Part shown: positions 47,726 through 55,031 of the stretch, piece after piece
How the letters are laid out: each line of letters begins with the position of its first letter
Numbering within the stretch: the stretch's first letter is position 1
Source: Alphaproteobacteria bacterium
GTDB lineage: Bacteria > Pseudomonadota > Alphaproteobacteria > UBA8366 > Aestuariispiraceae
Length of the DNA: 64,000 nucleotides
Direction: 5' to 3'
Assembly: GCA_033344895.1 (NCBI GenBank)
Contig: JAWPMN010000001.1
Span: 496,001 to 560,000, forward strand
Notes under the pieces: generated by a model
Told to the model about the DNA's origin: nothing
Databases searched by the model: none
What the model saw: the letters and a program-made list of their open reading frames with translations, nothing else
Position numbers and translations under genes: made by a program

Positions 47726-47748
47726 GCCGATAGCCAGAAGCGGACGTT
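47726..47748. repeat. dispersed repeat copy (CCGATAGCCAGAAGCGGACG type)
   Basis: GCCGATAGCCAGAAGCGGACG matches copies at 19678, 54830 and, loosely, 51327. It begins 21 bases downstream of the vapB stop. Confidence 0.6.
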
Positions 47749-47769
47749 TTAAGGTGGCTGCACGCGCCT

Positions 47770-48000
47770 TCAGAGACCTTCGCGCACCTGTTGCCCAGGT
47801 TGATCGCGCGTGGCCATGAAGTCCGAGGTCGCCCGGTCGCCTTCGAAGAAAGTTCTCCACGTTGCGCCTTGTGGGTAAATCACAAGCGCGTTTCCAACGG
47901 CCAGGACTTCAACCTTTTTGATGTGATCCGGAAACGCCAATGCCTTTGGGATCCGAACGGCCTGGGTTCGGTTGCTGTAAAAGACTGTAGATTTTGTCAT
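47770..48000 (-). CDS. vapB: VapB-type antitoxin without a partner toxin
   Basis: 76 residues, the normal VapB length. The text MTKSTVFYSNRTQAVRIPKA and DFMATRDQPGQQVREGL follows the AbrB-fold VapB antitoxins. The ATG at 48000 is preceded by a strong GGGAGGG site. In such pairs the PIN-domain toxin gene vapC normally overlaps or directly follows the antitoxin stop. Here the stop is followed by the dispersed repeat and a gene-free stretch with no PIN protein on either strand. It is an orphan or a remnant of a toxin-antitoxin module. Confidence 0.82.
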   Translation of the reverse strand: MTKSTVFYSNRTQAVRIPKALAFPDHIKKVEVLAVGNALVIYPQGATWRTFFEGDRATSDFMATRDQPGQQVREGL

Positions 48001-48148
48001 CGCCTTCCCTCCCAGGGCTTATGGGGAAACAAGTTTGGCCCCGCTGCATATGCCGATCTTGTTCAGGTTAGCAGGGGTTGGCAATTCGGTCGTTTCATCT
48101 ACCGACCGCATACTGCTCTCTTCCATCCATCTTCTGAGGAGAGCTCCG

Positions 48149-48784
48149 ATGGTACATTTAACCATTAACTGCGCCCCAAGCAGACGCCGTGTGCCCTGGA
48201 ACAAGGGAAAGTTCACTGGCCCGAAGCCACCTTTGAAAGCGAAACATGTATGGGCCATTCGAGCGCATCTTGGGTTGTCAAGGAAGGTTCGGGATCTCGC
48301 CCTCTTCAATGTGGCGATCGACAGCAAACTGCGTGGTTGTGATGTCGTCGCTTTGAAGGTGAACGACATAGCCCCGAATGGCTGTACGGCGAATCGAGCG
48401 ACGGTCCGTCAGCGGAAAACCGGCAGACCGGTCAAGTTCGAGCTAACCGAACCAACACGGGAAGCCGTCGATGCCTATCTCGAGTCACCCCGGCGGCCAC
48501 TGGGAGAGTATTTGTTCCCTGGGAACCGCGGTAGAGATGAGCATCTAACAACTAGGCAATACGCGCGACTGGTCGGCAACTGGGTCACATACATTGGTCT
48601 CGACCGGGCCTTGTACGGGACACATTCGCTGAGGCGTACAAAGGCGACGCTGATCTACCGAAAAACCGGAAACCTGCGTGCCGTCCAGCTGTTGCTGGGC
48701 CATACAAAAATCGAGAGCACCGTTCGTTATCTAGGAATAGAAGTCGATGATGCGCTCGAAATTGCTGAACAAGTTGAAGTCTGA
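48149..48784 (+). CDS. small tyrosine recombinase/integrase
   Basis: 211 residues from the ATG at 48149 (GAGGAGA 8 bases upstream). The catalytic half of a tyrosine recombinase is present: Arg in SKLRGCDVVALKVNDI, HSLRRTKATLIYRKTG (HxxR), LLGHTKIESTVRYLG (His and nucleophile Tyr). The N-terminal arm-binding and SAM-like core domains of phage integrases are missing, but near-identical short forms are common in alphaproteobacterial genomes, so I read it as full length for its family. No attachment site or tRNA gene is seen nearby. It lies next to the IS element. Confidence 0.85.
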   Translation: MVHLTINCAPSRRRVPWNKGKFTGPKPPLKAKHVWAIRAHLGLSRKVRDLALFNVAIDSKLRGCDVVALKVNDIAPNGCTANRATVRQRKTGRPVKFELTEPTREAVDAYLESPRRPLGEYLFPGNRGRDEHLTTRQYARLVGNWVTYIGLDRALYGTHSLRRTKATLIYRKTGNLRAVQLLLGHTKIESTVRYLGIEVDDALEIAEQVEV

Positions 48785-48830
48785 CCCTTAGGGCGGAGCG
48801 GATTTGGTCCGCTCTGCCTCCTCTAGTGGA

Positions 48831-48838
48831 ACGTAGCC
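48831..48838. repeat. left half of an interrupted palindromic repeat (IS target site)
   Basis: ACGTAGCC abuts the inferred left end of the IS. Joined to ATTAACGGAT at 50219-50228 it rebuilds ACGTAGCCATTAACGGAT, which matches the intact repeat at 51327-51347 (GTTAGCCATTAACGGAC) almost base for base. Confidence 0.65.
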
Positions 48839-48858
48839 AGGATGTATGGACCGGCTGC

Positions 48859-49079
48859 AGTGTGCAATTGAGTTTGTGCATTTCCTGGGACGTCGCAAAT
48901 ATGTATCCGGCCTGTTGGATCGGCTCGTGGGCCGTGGCCTTGATGGGAATACGCACGCGCCATTGATCTCTTTAGCGGACAGGTCGATTTCGACCATCCT
49001 GGCTAACAGATTTTGGGTGCGTTTCTTGGTCCGTTCCATGCAGTTTTCTCAATCGCGAACGTGTTCCTGTACCGTCATT
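48859..49079 (-). ncRNA. candidate seekRNA/bridge-RNA region of the IS1111-type element
   Basis: The 220 bases between the transposase stop and the inverted repeat carry no credible gene. In IS1111-group elements the guide RNA that selects the target is encoded downstream of the transposase, as established for this family. The location and length fit; I did not derive a secondary structure or guide loops, so the exact ends are unknown. Confidence 0.4.
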
Positions 49080-50144
49080 TCAGATCGCGGCGGCCTCAAC
49101 GTGGTGAGCGTCGAACCTGTTGCCCTTGTGCAGAACAGACCAGGCGATCCGTGCAAGCTTGTTGGCGAGCGCCGAGGCAAGCTTGTTCTTGTGCATCCGC
49201 TGTGACGCCCGCTTCAGCCACGGCCCGAAGCTGAACTTCTCCCAGTTCTTCGGTCGCATCAGGATGATGTGGGCGGCCTGAATGAACAGTGTGCGCAGGT
49301 ATCTGTTGCCACGCTTCGATATCTTACCCAGGATCGGTTTGCCGCCGGTCGAGTACTGCCGGGGTACGAGACCAAGCCATGCACCGAAGTCACGGCCTCG
49401 GTCGAACGCCTCGCCCGTGCCGATGGCCGCCACCATGGCCGTCGAGATGATCGGGCCGATACCGGGAACGCTCATCAGCCGCTGGCAGTCGCCATCGCGT
49501 TTGGAGATCAACTCGATCTCCTCCGTCGTGCTCTCGATGCGCTCGTCGAGCCACAGCCAGTCCTCGTATAGGCCGATGATGATCGTCTCCATGCGCGGTG
49601 AAATCTCATCAGCCCTGTTCTCGAGAATCGTGAACAGGGAGTTGCGCAACGATCGCGCCCCCGTGCGCACGGCGATCCCCTGTTCGATCAGAAACGCCCG
49701 GATCTGGTTGATCGTCGCCGTGCGCCGCGAGACCAGGCGTGCCCGAACACGGTGCAACGCTTGTAGATCGAGCTGGTCTTGCGTCTTCTCCGGGACGACC
49801 TTCAGATTCGGACGGAGTACGGCTTCGGCGATCGCCTCGGCATCGTTGTAGTCGTTCTTCTGCCCCTTGATGAACGGCTTCGTGTACTTTGCCGGAATGA
49901 TCCGCGGTTCGAACCCCATGCCACGCAGGGTTCGGCTGACGAAATGGGCGCTCAGACAGGCCTCCATGCCAACGATACAGCGTGGGAAACGTGAAAACTC
50001 CTTCTCGAGATCCAACCGCTTGATCTTGCGGCGCAGGACGACAGAGCCGTTCGGCTCAAAGCCCACAAGGTGGAAAACGTCCTTGCCTATATCGATGCCG
50101 ACAGAAGAGAGGGCACCGATCGTCTGTTGAGATGTCGTTACCAT
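49080..50144 (-). CDS. IS110-family transposase (DEDD/Ser recombinase)
   Basis: 354 residues. The N-terminal RuvC-like DEDD domain is visible: VGIDIGKDVFHLVGF (first Asp), VGMEACLSAHFVSRTL (Glu), KNDYNDAEAIAEAVLRP (last Asp pair). The C-terminal Tnp2 domain has LMSVPGIGPIISTAMVAAIG, GAWLGLVPRQYSTGGKPILG and KISKRGNRYLRTLF with the catalytic Ser. The frame is intact, so the element may be active. It is directed against the small recombinase gene. Confidence 0.95.
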   Translation of the reverse strand: MVTTSQQTIGALSSVGIDIGKDVFHLVGFEPNGSVVLRRKIKRLDLEKEFSRFPRCIVGMEACLSAHFVSRTLRGMGFEPRIIPAKYTKPFIKGQKNDYNDAEAIAEAVLRPNLKVVPEKTQDQLDLQALHRVRARLVSRRTATINQIRAFLIEQGIAVRTGARSLRNSLFTILENRADEISPRMETIIIGLYEDWLWLDERIESTTEEIELISKRDGDCQRLMSVPGIGPIISTAMVAAIGTGEAFDRGRDFGAWLGLVPRQYSTGGKPILGKISKRGNRYLRTLFIQAAHIILMRPKNWEKFSFGPWLKRASQRMHKNKLASALANKLARIAWSVLHKGNRFDAHHVEAAAI

Positions 50145-50218
50145 GGAATGCTGCTCCTTTCATGTACGGATTGAAGTCTTTACAGACTAACCCGCTGGGG
50201 AAGCAGCCGGTCCATCCC

Positions 50219-50228
50219 ATTAACGGAT
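50219..50228. repeat. right half of the interrupted palindromic repeat (IS target site)
   Basis: ATTAACGGAT follows the inferred right end of the IS and completes the palindromic repeat begun at 48831-48838. Confidence 0.65.
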
Positions 50229-50422
50229 GTGCGTTGGAAATTAGGTTGGTACTCAAAGCTCGCTGAATCTGTGCCGGTTACTATTCTTCGTTGACGCTAT
50301 TTCTGTTCCTAGTTGCCTGAAAGTAAACACCTGAGTTTATAATGAATGGGGCCGCATCAATTCCATTTGATCGCGCGGCGCATGGAGGAAAATTGAAAGA
50401 GCACCAAGAAGGCGAACCGCAA

Positions 50423-51274
50423 ATGGATTCATCGGCGATGTTTGCTGTACTTCGGGGGCGAAGTTTGTTGCTGATGTTATTGCTGGCAACGGCGCTTCCA
50501 CTCTTGAGTGCTAGATTCATTTGGCCTGAATTTTTTGTAGCTGAGGTACGGTCGCTTCCGGACGCGATTGTCGGGTGTGCGGTGTATGTTCTCTTAGCCA
50601 GCTTAATTTGGGTTGCTTGTAAGAAAGCGGGCATTGCAGATCAAATTTCGTTTGGGCACCGGCTAAATGCAAAACAGGTTTGGATTTACAGTCTTCTTGG
50701 CATCCCGCTAGTTGGCGTTTCGGTTTTTGGCTTATACTCAGTTTATTTGCCACTATCATACGCTTGGCCGGATTTCGTGGTTTTTTGGGTATTGGACGTT
50801 CCGCCTCTTATCTGGTGGGAACCACGAATTGAAGCTGTTCTTGCGAGTGGGGTTAATGCGATTGTCCTCGTGGCTATCGCGCCTGTAGTCGAAGAATTAT
50901 TTTTCAGGGGCTTTCTGCTTAATAGGTGGCACCAACAATATGGGCCCGCCAAGGCGGTAGTGTTCTCGTCCATGATATTCGCCTTGTTTCATGTTGACGT
51001 TGTTGGCGGGTTAATTTTTGGAGCTGTTCTCTCAGCAATTTACATGAAAACAAAATCTCTTTTTGGGCCCATAGTCATCCACATGTCGAACAATGCGATT
51101 GTGTTCGTGTTGCTATTAGTCGAAGGGACAGTTTATAGCGGGACACAGAATTGGACCTTGGATGAGTTTCGAGCCTTTTGGTGGTTGGGGCCCCTTGGCG
51201 CTGTAATAGGCATTCCGTGGATCGTTTGGTTTTTCCGAAAATCGCTTCATCATAGACAAGCGCCCTCAACCTGA
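50423..51274 (+). CDS. CPBP-family intramembrane metalloprotease
   Basis: 283 residues from the ATG at 50423; the frame also allows an ATG at 50342, but the extra 27 residues are hydrophilic and unlike the family. Seven or eight membrane segments. All three CPBP motifs are intact: VVEELFFRGFLLNRW (EExxxR), ALFHVDVVGGL (FxxxH) and HMSNNAIVFV (HxxxN). The gene is markedly AT-richer than its surroundings and lies between the IS and the Gabija-like pair, so it was probably acquired horizontally. CPBP proteins include bacteriocin-immunity and Abi-type proteins; an immunity role is possible but not shown. Confidence 0.85.
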   Translation: MDSSAMFAVLRGRSLLLMLLLATALPLLSARFIWPEFFVAEVRSLPDAIVGCAVYVLLASLIWVACKKAGIADQISFGHRLNAKQVWIYSLLGIPLVGVSVFGLYSVYLPLSYAWPDFVVFWVLDVPPLIWWEPRIEAVLASGVNAIVLVAIAPVVEELFFRGFLLNRWHQQYGPAKAVVFSSMIFALFHVDVVGGLIFGAVLSAIYMKTKSLFGPIVIHMSNNAIVFVLLLVEGTVYSGTQNWTLDEFRAFWWLGPLGAVIGIPWIVWFFRKSLHHRQAPST

Positions 51275-51326
51275 ATGTCCGTCACGGGGCCATTAGTGAG
51301 GCAGGCCCCCTGGCTCCTTCGCCGGC

Positions 51327-51347
51327 GTCCGTTAGCCATTAACGGAC
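51327..51347. repeat. intact REP-like palindrome GTCCGTTA-GCCAT-TAACGGAC
   Basis: Perfect 8-bp arms and a 5-base loop, between the convergent CPBP and helicase genes. It matches the target site rebuilt around the IS and is related to the dispersed repeats at 19678, 47726 and 54830. It may also serve as a weak two-way transcription stop. Confidence 0.65.
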
Positions 51348-51395
51348 TCTCTCGAAATGTGGAGGAACCTCCAGAGTCCATGTCAGTCCGAGTAA

Positions 51396-52925
51396 CTAAC
51401 TAAGCCTGATAAGAGGGCTGGGGTTGGTGCGCGGTACCACAAGTCTCAACGAATGTTTCGCTCGGGTTAAAGCGACATACAACATGCACCGTTTGTAGGG
51501 AGTATCTCTAAAATTCTGATCGTCACACGGTATGAGCATGGAGTGATCACACTCCAGACCCTTTGCCTTGTGAATACTGCTGATTGTTTTCGATGGAGGT
51601 GAGGGGCGGACATAGGCCCGTTTGCGAGAAATCTCTGCAAATGCGCCCTGAGCGCTCGGATATCTATCCAGTTGCTTCGCTTCGTTGAACTCGGTGCGGT
51701 AGTCAATATACACTGCATCGAATCCTGCGGCTCTTTGATTGATTAACTCGCCGATAAGGCGGATGGCGGCGCTCGCTCCTCTGTGATCCGGAAATTCGAG
51801 AACGCACTTGGCAATGAGTTGGATATTGGCCGGCTTGCCAGTCGTCGATTTGGCGCAGCCGTTTCGGACCTCCTGGATCAGCCTCCTACCATGACTGCTC
51901 TCGCTAAAGCCCTTGGCGGTAGTACTAACGAAGGCAGCCAACGCTGCGGCTATGGCTTCAGCATTTCCCGCGCGCTCGTCTAAGGCAGAGACGAAATCGG
52001 CCAAAGCATTGCGGGTATGCCCTTCCCATATCGGGATGGAACGATTCCAGAAACTTCGCAGTCCACGGGCAAGATCGGTCTGGGCCGTGAGGATCATGAG
52101 TTGAGATTGAGATTGTACATTCTGATCGATTTGGCGCCGATCTTCTTGTGAAAGCATATAGAGGCCGTGTGTTTGAGCGGTGTTGTCGGCTCGTATGATT
52201 TGCACGGAGCGAGGCACATTGCTCGTGAGATCGATGGGATTCCCGTTTTCAAGATTCTCACGCGCTTTCCGGAGCCAATGCCCCAGTTCCCGATCTCCGT
52301 CCTCCCACCGATGTGGATGGTCGAGACGATCCCACGCTGCTTCGGATTTCAAGGTTTCCCAGCGCTCTCGATTGGCCCTGGCGGCTTTTGCTGATTTTGT
52401 GTCGTAGATGCTCTGTAATGGGTCGCCGAACACACGCAGCATGGCTCCGCTTCGGTGTAGTGCCATCACGACCGCATGCTGGTCGGGAGAGGAATCCTGG
52501 TGCTCGTCACAGACGATGAAGGGATATCGGCAGGCGAGGGCGCGCGCCACCATTGGCCTATTGCCGAGGAAGGAAGCGACCTTAGACGCCATGATGCCGA
52601 AGCCTTTGCCTTCGTCTTGCCAAGCCCACGCTGACACATCGGCGGGTAAATCGAGCACGGCATGGTAGGCGGTAGCGATCTGAGCGATGAGCGCGTCGAT
52701 GGTCTTGATCTCGACGGAGCGTCCTGCTCCTGCGGTACGTTCCGCGAATACGGTGCATGCTGCATGGGTGTGAGTGAGGATTAACAGTCGGCCCGATCCA
52801 AGGGTCACTGCGAGATCACGAGCGTATGCTGCACCCTGGTATGTCTTCCCCGCGCCTGCTGCCGCTTCAATCACGACAAGAGGCTCGTCGGATCTCAGGA
52901 GTGCGGCCACGCTTTCATCGCTCAT
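51396..52925 (-). CDS. UvrD-like SF1 helicase, GajB-like (Gabija defence)
   Basis: 509 residues, close to GajB. SF1 motifs: Walker A IEAAAGAGKTYQGAAYA; motif II VCDEHQDSSPDQ; motif III region FGDPLQSIYD; motif V SSIHKAKGLECDHSM; motif VI LYVALTRAKHSLRL. The ATG overlaps the stop of the OLD-nuclease gene as ATGA, so the two are translationally coupled. In Gabija, GajB senses nucleotide/DNA state and activates the GajA nuclease against phage (family knowledge). The call rests on gene pairing, sizes and motifs. Confidence 0.75.
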   Translation of the reverse strand: MSDESVAALLRSDEPLVVIEAAAGAGKTYQGAAYARDLAVTLGSGRLLILTHTHAACTVFAERTAGAGRSVEIKTIDALIAQIATAYHAVLDLPADVSAWAWQDEGKGFGIMASKVASFLGNRPMVARALACRYPFIVCDEHQDSSPDQHAVVMALHRSGAMLRVFGDPLQSIYDTKSAKAARANRERWETLKSEAAWDRLDHPHRWEDGDRELGHWLRKARENLENGNPIDLTSNVPRSVQIIRADNTAQTHGLYMLSQEDRRQIDQNVQSQSQLMILTAQTDLARGLRSFWNRSIPIWEGHTRNALADFVSALDERAGNAEAIAAALAAFVSTTAKGFSESSHGRRLIQEVRNGCAKSTTGKPANIQLIAKCVLEFPDHRGASAAIRLIGELINQRAAGFDAVYIDYRTEFNEAKQLDRYPSAQGAFAEISRKRAYVRPSPPSKTISSIHKAKGLECDHSMLIPCDDQNFRDTPYKRCMLYVALTRAKHSLRLVVPRTNPSPLIRLS

Positions 52926-54682
52926 GGCTGAAGGTCGTCGCGTTCTTGCATCTCCGAAGCTCGCAAGACCGCATTGATCAGAGGCATCAACGACGGACGC
53001 AGGTTAGGCCATGCGCCACCGGACAACATCCTCTTGGCCAACTCACGTCCACCAGCCTCGGATTTGAACCAGCACCGGGCATGTGCTTTCCACTCCTTCT
53101 CTGAACCTTCAGGAGCGCCGTCTTTGTCGCCGGTTGCCGCGGCGATGATGAGCGTGCGCAGGCTTGTTCCTGTCGCATCTAACGCTTGTCGGATTTTGTC
53201 CAGGCTCTTGTCCTGCGAACCGAGCCGATCGGCTAGTGTCCGCAGACGCAGACCATCTTCGGCACCGTCTGTGTCAGTGACCAACTTGCCCAGTTGATCG
53301 TCCGGTATGTTGGCGATCACCTGCTCTTCCGTGCATCCCGTCGGCCATTGGAGCAGTGCATCGCCAAGTTGATCCTTTAGCGCCTTCCATCGTTCAGGAT
53401 TTCGACCTTCGTTGTCAGCAAGCCCGCAGAAAAGAAGGCCGCTGGAGGAGAGCGCTTCGAGTAGGCCGAGAGTCGCGTCATTGCCCTGCCCGTCGCAGAC
53501 CCGAACGCCACGGTCTAGTGGCTCGCCTGAAAAAGCACATTCTAGAAGATATCGAAGGAACCCTACTTCGGTTGCGCCTTCAGCGATCACGGCAACCCGT
53601 GAAAGGAAAGTTTCTGGATCACGACGCTGTTGCTGCTCGATCTTATGACGGGGCAGCGGTCCAATTTGCCCACAGCTATCGAGATACCAGAGATCTGCCT
53701 TTTCGGTGCAGGCGATCGCGACTGCGCTGTGTGTTGTGACAAAAGACTGGCAGAAGGAACCGATTACACTGCCTATGAGCTTGCGCAGGCGATACGGCTC
53801 TAAGCCACGCTCAATTTCGTCGATCGCAGCTATGCTGGTGTTAGTCCGATTCACCGACGCTGTTTCAAGGGCGGCCATTCGGCGTGTCCCTGCTCCCCAG
53901 CTGGATAAGGGAAGGTCGGTATCGTCTTTCTCGGCGTGAAGCCCGATAAGCGCGCCGATTGATAGGCCGTGGGTTGTCGTCAACCCGAGTGACAAACCGT
54001 GCGGGAGCGAGGCCTTCTCGAAGCGCGCGCTTAGGTCGTCAATGCTTTCTCTGCCGTCATCCCCCAACGGCGCGTTCAGATCGATCTTTGAGACCTCCTT
54101 GCCGATACGCGCGCGAAGGGACACATCTGAGAACAACCGATCTAATGCGGATCCGTAAACTAGGCGTAGATCGCGGTCATTGCGATCATCCCCACTCAGT
54201 CTAACAAGACCAACCGCGCGCCGGATTCCGGTCGTGAGAGAGTCCGCATCGCCGTTCGGCTGGACTAACTCCCACAACAGTTCAAGCTCAGTTGTCCCAC
54301 GGAGTCGGAACCAATACACGGGATTGTCTGGGGGCGCATCGGCATCGCCCCCCACGTCTGTTGGCAACACCGCATTCTGACCGTCCCAGTTCCATGGCCA
54401 TGCGAATTTCGGCTGTGTGCTCATTTCCGATGATTCCGGAAGAGAGAAAACGCCGTCGATGCAGAATTCCTCGGAAGCGTCACGCTGCCAATAGTCGGAC
54501 TCGGAGACGATGGTTGAGTTAGAAGGGCTCAGGAGAAGGCCGATCGCCTCGAGAATGGTCGTTTTGCCGGTGTCTCCGCCCCCAATTATGACGTTCATAC
54601 CGTTTGCAGGTTGCCAACAGAAGTCCTTCAATCCCCGAAAACGGCTGATAGAGAGCTTTCGTAGGATAGGTGCTTCCGTCAT
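52922..54682 (-). CDS. OLD-family ATPase-TOPRIM nuclease, GajA-like (Gabija defence)
   Basis: 586 residues from the ATG at 54682; the frame's earlier codon is TTG. N-terminal ABC/SMC-type ATPase: LSISRFRGLKDFCW, Walker A IIGGGDTGKTTILEAIGLLL, signature-like SSWGAGTRRM, Walker B SIAAIDEIERGLEP and the His loop SFVTTHSAVAIACTE. A C-terminal TOPRIM domain starts with VIAEGATEVGFLRYLL (catalytic Glu) and continues GVRVCDGQGND and GLADNEGRNPE. GajA is a sequence-specific nickase in known systems. Size and partner fit Gabija, but other class-2 OLD systems pair with helicases too. Confidence 0.75.
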   Translation of the reverse strand: MTEAPILRKLSISRFRGLKDFCWQPANGMNVIIGGGDTGKTTILEAIGLLLSPSNSTIVSESDYWQRDASEEFCIDGVFSLPESSEMSTQPKFAWPWNWDGQNAVLPTDVGGDADAPPDNPVYWFRLRGTTELELLWELVQPNGDADSLTTGIRRAVGLVRLSGDDRNDRDLRLVYGSALDRLFSDVSLRARIGKEVSKIDLNAPLGDDGRESIDDLSARFEKASLPHGLSLGLTTTHGLSIGALIGLHAEKDDTDLPLSSWGAGTRRMAALETASVNRTNTSIAAIDEIERGLEPYRLRKLIGSVIGSFCQSFVTTHSAVAIACTEKADLWYLDSCGQIGPLPRHKIEQQQRRDPETFLSRVAVIAEGATEVGFLRYLLECAFSGEPLDRGVRVCDGQGNDATLGLLEALSSSGLLFCGLADNEGRNPERWKALKDQLGDALLQWPTGCTEEQVIANIPDDQLGKLVTDTDGAEDGLRLRTLADRLGSQDKSLDKIRQALDATGTSLRTLIIAAATGDKDGAPEGSEKEWKAHARCWFKSEAGGRELAKRMLSGGAWPNLRPSLMPLINAVLRASEMQERDDLQP

Positions 54683-55031
54683 CGAGCAATCTTTCAATTA
54701 GTCTCATACTGTTTCACAGTTCACTGGTATCACGTTTTGATTGAAATTTAATCCACCTTGCTCTTGGTGTCGCCAAAGAGTCCGCTCCGAGTCAGCTGTG
54801 AGCCTGGTTCCGACCGCCCCTCGCCGACGACCGATAGCCAGGAACGGACGATCCGGACAATAGTAACAACACAGGCGCCCGTCAGACGAATTCTTGGGGC
54901 CGTACTTTATGGAACTGATTGCATGCGGGCCCATTTCTGGGGGAACGGTTGAAGGGACGCCGAGAGCAACAAAACCGGGCGGGGAACCGTCAAGTGTATG
55001 CCTCACCTCATCATTTTAGCATTTCCTGACG
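54683..55031. other. promoter-side gap upstream of the Gabija-like pair
   Basis: 349 bases with no credible gene. It holds the promoter side of the GajA-like gene (AT-rich near 54690-54760) and a copy of the dispersed repeat at 54830-54850. It marks the right edge of the accessory island. Confidence 0.5.
54830..54850. repeat. dispersed repeat copy (CCGATAGCCAGGAACGGACG type)
   Basis: ACCGATAGCCAGGAACGGACG differs by a few bases from the copy at 47726-47748. The two copies bracket the vapB-recombinase-IS-CPBP-Gabija stretch. Confidence 0.6.

What the first reader, a model, noticed from the sequence alone, without database searches (positions are those of the whole stretch)
48831..50228. IS1111-type element sits inside a REP-like palindrome, with an empty copy 1.1 kb away
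Seen: 13-bp inverted repeats at 48846 and 50203 around an intact IS110-family transposase; removing 48839-50218 joins ACGTAGCC to ATTAACGGAT, nearly identical to the intact palindrome at 51327-51347. Known: IS1111-group elements have asymmetric sub-terminal repeats, make no target duplication and choose palindromic targets. Inference: this element targets the spacer of a dispersed repeat of this genome.
Basis: partly seen in the sequence, partly recalled or inferred. Interest (0 to 1): 0.7.

Follow-up and report, generated by a model that had tools for sequence, protein, structure and literature searches.

The report
RNA-guided insertion element in repeat palindrome
A jumping gene of a known RNA-guided family sits in a scattered palindromic repeat of a bacterial chromosome; an untouched twin of the same spot, elsewhere in the chromosome, shows exactly where it went in, and its predicted guide RNA matches that spot.

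Summary
The element is real: an IS1111-type insertion sequence, but its ends were misplaced by 4 bp. A 2.2-kb duplicate of the flanks without the IS lies at 4.61 Mb in the same chromosome and gives the true junction, TAGCCAGGA|ACGGAT, so the IS is 48843-50222. TAGCCATTAACGGA at 51333 is another copy of the repeat, not the empty form of this target. A predicted guide RNA downstream of the transposase (minus strand, about 49041-48934) carries TAGCCAGGA, matching its right flank 9 of 9. Over 73 related copies both guides match their own flanks better than any of 2,000 shuffles. The target is one half of a composite REP-like palindrome. Six of the eight closest relatives carry guides with the GGGTCA core of the other half, so this copy looks naturally re-aimed. 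This is established IS1111/seekRNA biology. Less expected: the duplicated unit, which carries a small tyrosine recombinase, starts and ends at TAGCCA of such palindromes. Draft contigs of a second genome show TAGCCA ends too, and a palindrome-like motif follows related recombinase genes (5 of 27, against 1 of 476 control windows). The repeats may also be recombination sites.

The parts
48843..50222 (-). IS1111-type element, 1380 bp (1-bp ambiguity: 48842-50221)
   Evidence: Comparison with the IS-free duplicate; fits the 7-bp/3-bp extension rule in PMC11187229
49080..50144 (-). DEDD transposase, 354 aa
   Evidence: Pfam DEDD_Tnp_IS110 8e-18 and Transposase_20 1.3e-24; NCBIfam IS110 RNA-guided transposase 312.6 bits, cutoff 140
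50203..50215 (-). left sub-terminal inverted repeat; 7-bp extension TAATGGG at 50216-50222
   Evidence: same extension in 65 of 73 copies
48846..48858 (-). right sub-terminal inverted repeat; 3-bp extension ACA at 48843-48845
   Evidence: same extension in 69 of 73 copies
48934..49041 (-). predicted guide RNA (seekRNA) core
   Evidence: Alignment of 30 copies chosen from 76; consensus fold with 7 of 16 pairs kept through changes on both sides
48996..49006 (-). guide 1 (TTAGCCAGGAT): 9 of 9 match to the right flank
   Evidence: 11-nt perfect match over the junction (pair I11)
48982..48995 (-). hairpin between the two guides
   Evidence: Alignment columns 49-52/61-64; two of its pairs changed on both sides in 9 of 30 sequences
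48975..48981 (-). guide 2 (TGTCCGC): 4 of 7 match to the left flank here
48834..48842 (+). left part of the interrupted palindrome (TAGCCAGGA); continues at 50223 (ACGGATG)
51331..51347 (+). another copy of the repeat (GTTAGCCATTAACGGAC); right end of the duplicated unit falls after TAGCCA (51338)
47731..47745 (+). repeat copy (TAGCCAGAAGCGGAC); left end of the duplicated unit
54835..54849 (+). repeat copy TAGCCAGGAACGGAC, same 14-base core as the empty target
48035..48784 (+). small tyrosine recombinase (open frame of 249 aa; true start probably later)
   Evidence: Pfam Phage_integrase 1.3e-17; residues 84-236 match the second half of XerD

Best explanation
This is an IS1111-family insertion sequence. 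Its transposase is inferred to work with an RNA made from the non-coding DNA downstream of its gene. Two short guide segments of that RNA pair with the two sides of the target, so the element enters a chosen site in one orientation without duplicating it. The target here is one half of a composite, dispersed REP-like palindrome (core TAGCCA followed by NNARCGGAC). Shown from sequence: family, ends, empty site, guide-to-flank match, conserved RNA fold. Inferred: RNA expression, RNA-guided transposition, and re-aiming from the GGGTCA core (guides of most of the closest relatives) to the TAGCCA core.
For: The IS-free duplicate gives the junction. Guide 1 matches its own right flank 7.2 of 9 on average over 73 copies, against 5.4 (highest 5.8) in 2,000 shuffles; guide 2 against left flank 4.7 of 7 (n=71), against 3.4 (highest 4.0). 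The result holds with one copy per distinct guide (n=42 and n=20). The consensus RNA puts both guides in one internal loop. The repeat is enriched: 40 hits in 11 of 385 genomes of the class (19 of them in one genome, 3 in the own) against 4 reversed-pattern hits; 11 against 1 in the own genome with a looser pattern, of which 3 lie in long open frames and may be chance. Order of guides (top-strand complement first) is that reported for IS1111 (PMC11187229).
Against: Guide 2 matches the window's own left flank only 4 of 7. There is a single copy in this genome, so specificity within the genome cannot be tested. Some relatives match poorly: L022, L065, L074 and L079 have right-flank scores of 5 or less, besides five whose register was misplaced. 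No expression data. The shuffles do not fully remove shared ancestry.
Confidence: 0.92

Rival explanations
1. The transposase or the palindromic shape alone selects the site; the guide match is a by-product of the element carrying target-like sequence.
For: REP targeting was earlier put down to transposases (PMC1525189, passages).
Against: Guides differ between copies and follow their own flanks, including unusual ones: L023, L034 and L092 each 9 of 9.
Confidence: 0.05
2. The first reader's junction (48839-50218, TAGCC|ATTAACGGAT) is right and 51333 is the empty form.
For: TAGCCATTAACGGA occurs 3 times in the genome.
Against: The duplicate has TAGCCAGGA|ACGGAT; TAATGGG and ACA are nearly constant parts of the element in relatives (65 and 69 of 73).
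Confidence: 0.02
3. The palindromes are attachment sites of the small tyrosine recombinase beside the IS, and the IS merely exploits them, as IS1111-attC elements exploit integron attC sites. This adds to the main explanation and does not replace it.
For: The duplicated 2.2-kb unit starts and ends at TAGCCA. In genome G327 two copies of a related recombinase's 3' end diverge exactly after TAGCCA. Motif GCCANNARCGGNCNTT (at least 11 of 12 letters) after the recombinase gene in 5 of 27 loci against 1 of 476 control windows.
Against: One clear duplication only. G327 copies are on draft contigs, two of the three longer ones are cut by contig ends, and their left ends are in the opposite sense to the window's. 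The motif was relaxed after looking at some loci, and L150 (G327) is among the 5. 22 of 27 loci do not reach the threshold; with the shorter motif the contrast is 5 of 27 against 21 of 476.
Confidence: 0.3

Closest known systems
IS1111-family elements with seekRNA: ISEc11, ISPa11, ISKpn4, ISPst6 (PMC11187229; abstract, sections 6, 9, 13 and passages read)
   Same: DEDD transposase, sub-terminal repeats, 7/3-bp extensions, non-coding region downstream of the gene, two guides in the same order
   Different: Target sequence; no experiment here
ISPpu9, ISPpu10, ISPa11, ISRm19: IS110-family elements in REP sequences (PMC1525189; abstract and passages read)
   Same: Insertion inside a dispersed extragenic palindrome
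   Different: Different repeat; only one copy here; guide identified here
ISXne4 against ISEc11, natural reprogramming (PMC11187229, passage read)
   Same: Close relatives with changed guides and changed target
   Different: Here the change appears to be between the two halves of one composite repeat
IS621 bridge RNA (PMC11208160; passages read)
   Same: Guide-target covariation, REP target, RNA internal loop with both guides
   Different: IS110 group, RNA upstream; a donor-binding loop was not sought here
IS1111-attC elements (Post & Hall 2009; known only through its title in the reference lists of PMC11187229 and PMC11208160, and recall)
   Same: Hit a possible recombination site of another system
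   Different: The site here does not fit the attC core consensus

Membership tests
IS1111 family | DEDD transposase with Transposase_20 domain | tested here: met
IS1111 family | sub-terminal inverted repeats, usually 11-13 bp | tested here: met
   13 of 13 bp
IS1111 family | asymmetric extensions, 7 bp left and 3 bp right | tested here: met
   IS-free duplicate, up to the 1-bp ambiguity
IS1111 family | long non-coding region downstream of the transposase gene | tested here: met
   224 bp between the last codon and the right repeat
IS1111 family | no target duplication | tested here: met
   (1 shared base)
IS1111 family | guide RNA with top-strand complement before bottom-strand match | tested here: met
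   by sequence
IS1111 family | RNA is made and needed for transposition | not testable with these tools
   needs an experiment
REP sequence | palindromic, dispersed | tested here: met
REP sequence | usually more than 100 copies per genome (PMC2817692, start of abstract in the listing) | tested here: inconclusive
   11 hits in the own genome with one pattern for the TAGCCA half, 3 of them in long open frames; looser members and the other half were not counted
REP sequence | linked RAYT transposase | not tested
integron attC site | R' core GTTRRRY and R'' core RYYYAAC (recalled consensus) | tested here: not met
   GTTAGCC has C at the sixth position; by reading the sites printed
integron | IntI integrase | tested here: inconclusive
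   the nearby recombinase is not IntI (21.3 bits, cutoff 265); the whole genome was not searched for IntI

The most novel reading that the evidence does not exclude
The dispersed TAGCCA palindromes are attachment sites of a small tyrosine recombinase, apparently reduced to the catalytic domain, that moves palindrome-bounded gene units (recombinase, CPBP protease, and perhaps the Gabija and mercury-resistance units) in an integron-like but non-attC way. The RNA-guided IS1111 element has re-aimed its guide to these sites.
Probability: 0.25. Interest if true: 0.72.

Novelty: new member of a known kind. Interest (0 to 1): 0.38.

Why it matters
The IS itself adds a well-resolved case: exact ends from an intragenomic empty twin, guides read from sequence, and an apparent natural change of guide between two halves of one composite repeat. 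If the side result holds, a class of palindromes found in several alphaproteobacteria would gain a function as recombination sites that move defence and metal-resistance genes.

Tried and rejected
Classic integron array (attC cores not matched; recombinase not IntI). General cassette array in other genomes: the 30 repeat copies examined look like composite palindromes, so the cassette reading rests on few cases. Ancestral empty site of the island in the genus: 2 of 13 other family genomes keep the left flank, but tblastn found neither the EamA gene nor the island genes in the two 12-kb stretches fetched there, so this gave nothing. A first count of half-palindromes near recombinase genes (8 near, 5 far) was weak, and two of the near hits are a terminator-like stem of the gene itself. 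An empty site for a Phaeobacter recombinase copy was not found. Rfam gave no match in the window at gathering scores. Papers: the listings showed no paper whose title or abstract start links small tyrosine recombinases with REP palindromes; one search did not bring up the palindrome family. These are limited searches of open papers.

Rows dropped: of 93 entries (window copy and L006-L097) 3 had no element end (L014, L015, L055) and 14 failed filters (8 distant, 6 truncated or without a right end); of the remaining 76, L006 (same locus as L019) and L046, L057 (short flank) were dropped. Five guide-1 registers (L028, L033, L043, L048, L052) were visibly misplaced and left in, which lowers the observed mean. 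Only the best 80 of 184 relatives were returned. Guide-2 counts use 71 of 73. The motif count used 27 of 28 loci (L148 is cut too short); two genomes (G327, G292) give two loci each.

Full report
Observation. The window holds one IS transposase gene of this kind on the minus strand (49080-50144, 354 aa) with both Pfam domains of the IS110/IS1111 group (NCBIfam 'IS110 family RNA-guided transposase', 312.6 bits against a cutoff of 140). Perfect 13-bp inverted repeats lie at 48846-48858 and 50203-50215. A DNA search of the own genome (4.64 Mb, one contig) finds a single copy of the element.

Exact ends. Window 47726-48842 and 50222-51338 are present without the IS at G000:C1 4616216-4613984 on the minus strand (1117 bp at 99.91% and 1117 bp at 100%; the two pieces share one A). 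The unit 47731-48842 plus 50223-51338, 2228 bp, is found there letter for letter. The empty site is TAGCCAGGA|ACGGATG. The element is therefore 48843-50222, 1380 bp, with TAATGGG outside the left repeat and ACA outside the right repeat. This is the 7-bp/3-bp rule given for IS1111 elements in PMC11187229 (passage). The site at 51333 (TAGCCATTAACGGA) is another member of the repeat family. The 14-base core of the empty site (TAGCCAGGAACGGA) recurs at 54835 and at 4620163.

Guide RNA. A scan of genome contigs gave 80 related loci, the best of 184. After the filters listed under Tried and rejected, 73 copies remain, the window's included. The left extension is TAATGGG in 65 of 73 and the right one ACA in 69 of 73. 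The non-coding region downstream of the gene holds a conserved RNA-like core. RNAalifold on 30 copies, chosen by me for variety from 76, places an internal loop between a stem (alignment columns 33-38 with 75-80) and a hairpin (49-52 with 61-64); 7 of 16 pairs have changes on both sides. The two sides of that loop are the guides. In the window, guide 1 (TTAGCCAGGAT, 49006-48996 on the minus strand) matches the right flank 9 of 9, and with two bases of the element forms an 11-nt perfect match (pair I11). Guide 2 (TGTCCGC) matches the left flank 4 of 7. Over the set, guide 1 matches its own flank 7.2 of 9 against a shuffled mean of 5.4 and maximum of 5.8. Guide 2 (71 copies) matches 4.7 of 7 against 3.4 and 4.0 (2,000 shuffles each). 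With one copy per distinct guide the gap remains (42 copies: 7.1 against 5.1; 20 copies: 4.5 against 3.0). Counter-examples exist: L022, L065, L074 and L079 match poorly on the right.

Target. TAGCCANNARCGGACRTT occurs 40 times in 11 of 385 genomes of the class (own genome 3, G049 19); the reversed pattern occurs 4 times. In the 30 loci retrieved the repeat often reads roughly ATGTCCGCTT-A-TAGCCA-NNARCGGACATT. Upstream within 15-85 bp a second palindrome with a GGGT.A core is found, at up to 6 substitutions, in 16 of 30 loci, against 0 of 30 downstream; the reverse strand of the same upstream stretch matches in 9 of 30, as one expects of a palindrome. The exact letters GGGTCA stand upstream in 6 of 30 and downstream in 2 of 30; other copies read GGGTAA or similar. 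So the repeat is composite, like a BIME, and GGGTCA is one version of its first half. Of the eight relatives with at least 79% identity to the transposase (L018-L022, L024, L025, L055), six carry the guide TGACCC (complement of GGGTCA), L020 carries TGGCAC and L055 GCAGAG. Of the 90 copies with both ends placed, only the window's non-coding region contains TAGCCAGG. The simplest account is a natural change of guide from one half of the composite repeat to the other. That is an inference from sequence.

Side result. The duplicated unit is bounded on both sides by TAGCCA. At the left, window and duplicate differ just before TAGCCA; at the right they diverge just after it. The unit holds a small tyrosine recombinase and a CPBP protease. 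The next repeat-bounded stretch (51339-54840) holds GajB- and GajA-like genes (PADLOC 2e-56 and 5e-66). Beside the duplicate, between repeat copies at 4610813 and 4613975, lie mercury-resistance genes (MerA 528 bits, cutoff 454; MerT and MerP-like domains; a MerR-family regulator). In genome G327, two copies of a related recombinase's 3' end (C129 and C80, 96% over 375 bp) diverge exactly after TAGCCA, and the other end begins with the inverted form (T)GGCTA. Downstream of 27 recombinase genes other than the own ones, a relaxed motif is met in 5, against 1 of 476 control windows; the motif was relaxed after seeing part of the data. In L069 (Tateyamaria) an IS1111 relative sits 32 bp after the stop codon of a 58%-identical recombinase, next to the same side of the gene as in the window, where the distance is 58 bp. 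These facts fit recombination sites, but they do not prove them.

Comparison. Mechanism and family are established (PMC11187229, PMC11208160), and REP targeting by IS110-family elements has been reported (PMC1525189). I therefore file the IS as a new member of a known kind and keep the recombinase-palindrome link as the most novel open reading.

Noticed in passing
window 51396-54697: Gabija-like defence pair (GajB 51396-52925, GajA 52922-54697, minus strand) between repeat copies at 51333 and 54835.
   Followed up: partly
window 47731-51338 and G000:C1 4613984-4616216: 2.2-kb identical duplication bounded by TAGCCA at both ends, with the IS in only one copy.
   Followed up: yes
L138 8041-10973 (C1 4611041-4613973): Mercury-resistance genes between two repeat copies next to the duplicate (MerA above its NCBIfam cutoff; MerT, MerP-like and MerR-like genes by Pfam or below NCBIfam cutoffs).
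   Followed up: partly
L150 1405-2213 (G327): Recombinase unit whose ends read TGGCTAACAATC and GATTGTTAGCCA, i.e. inverted terminal repeats.
   Followed up: partly
L032: Bradyrhizobium copy of the IS that lacks the whole guide 2 segment.
   Followed up: no
L030: Copy of the IS in Chenggangzhangella methanolivorans whose RNA region breaks off just after guide 1 and is followed by different DNA.
   Followed up: no
L065: Copy of the IS whose right side abuts sequence like another IS end (TATGTACCGGCTGCC) instead of the usual target.
   Followed up: no
window 47731-54849 and C1 4613975-4622077: Within each locus the repeat copies listed all point the same way as the recombinase gene.
   Followed up: no
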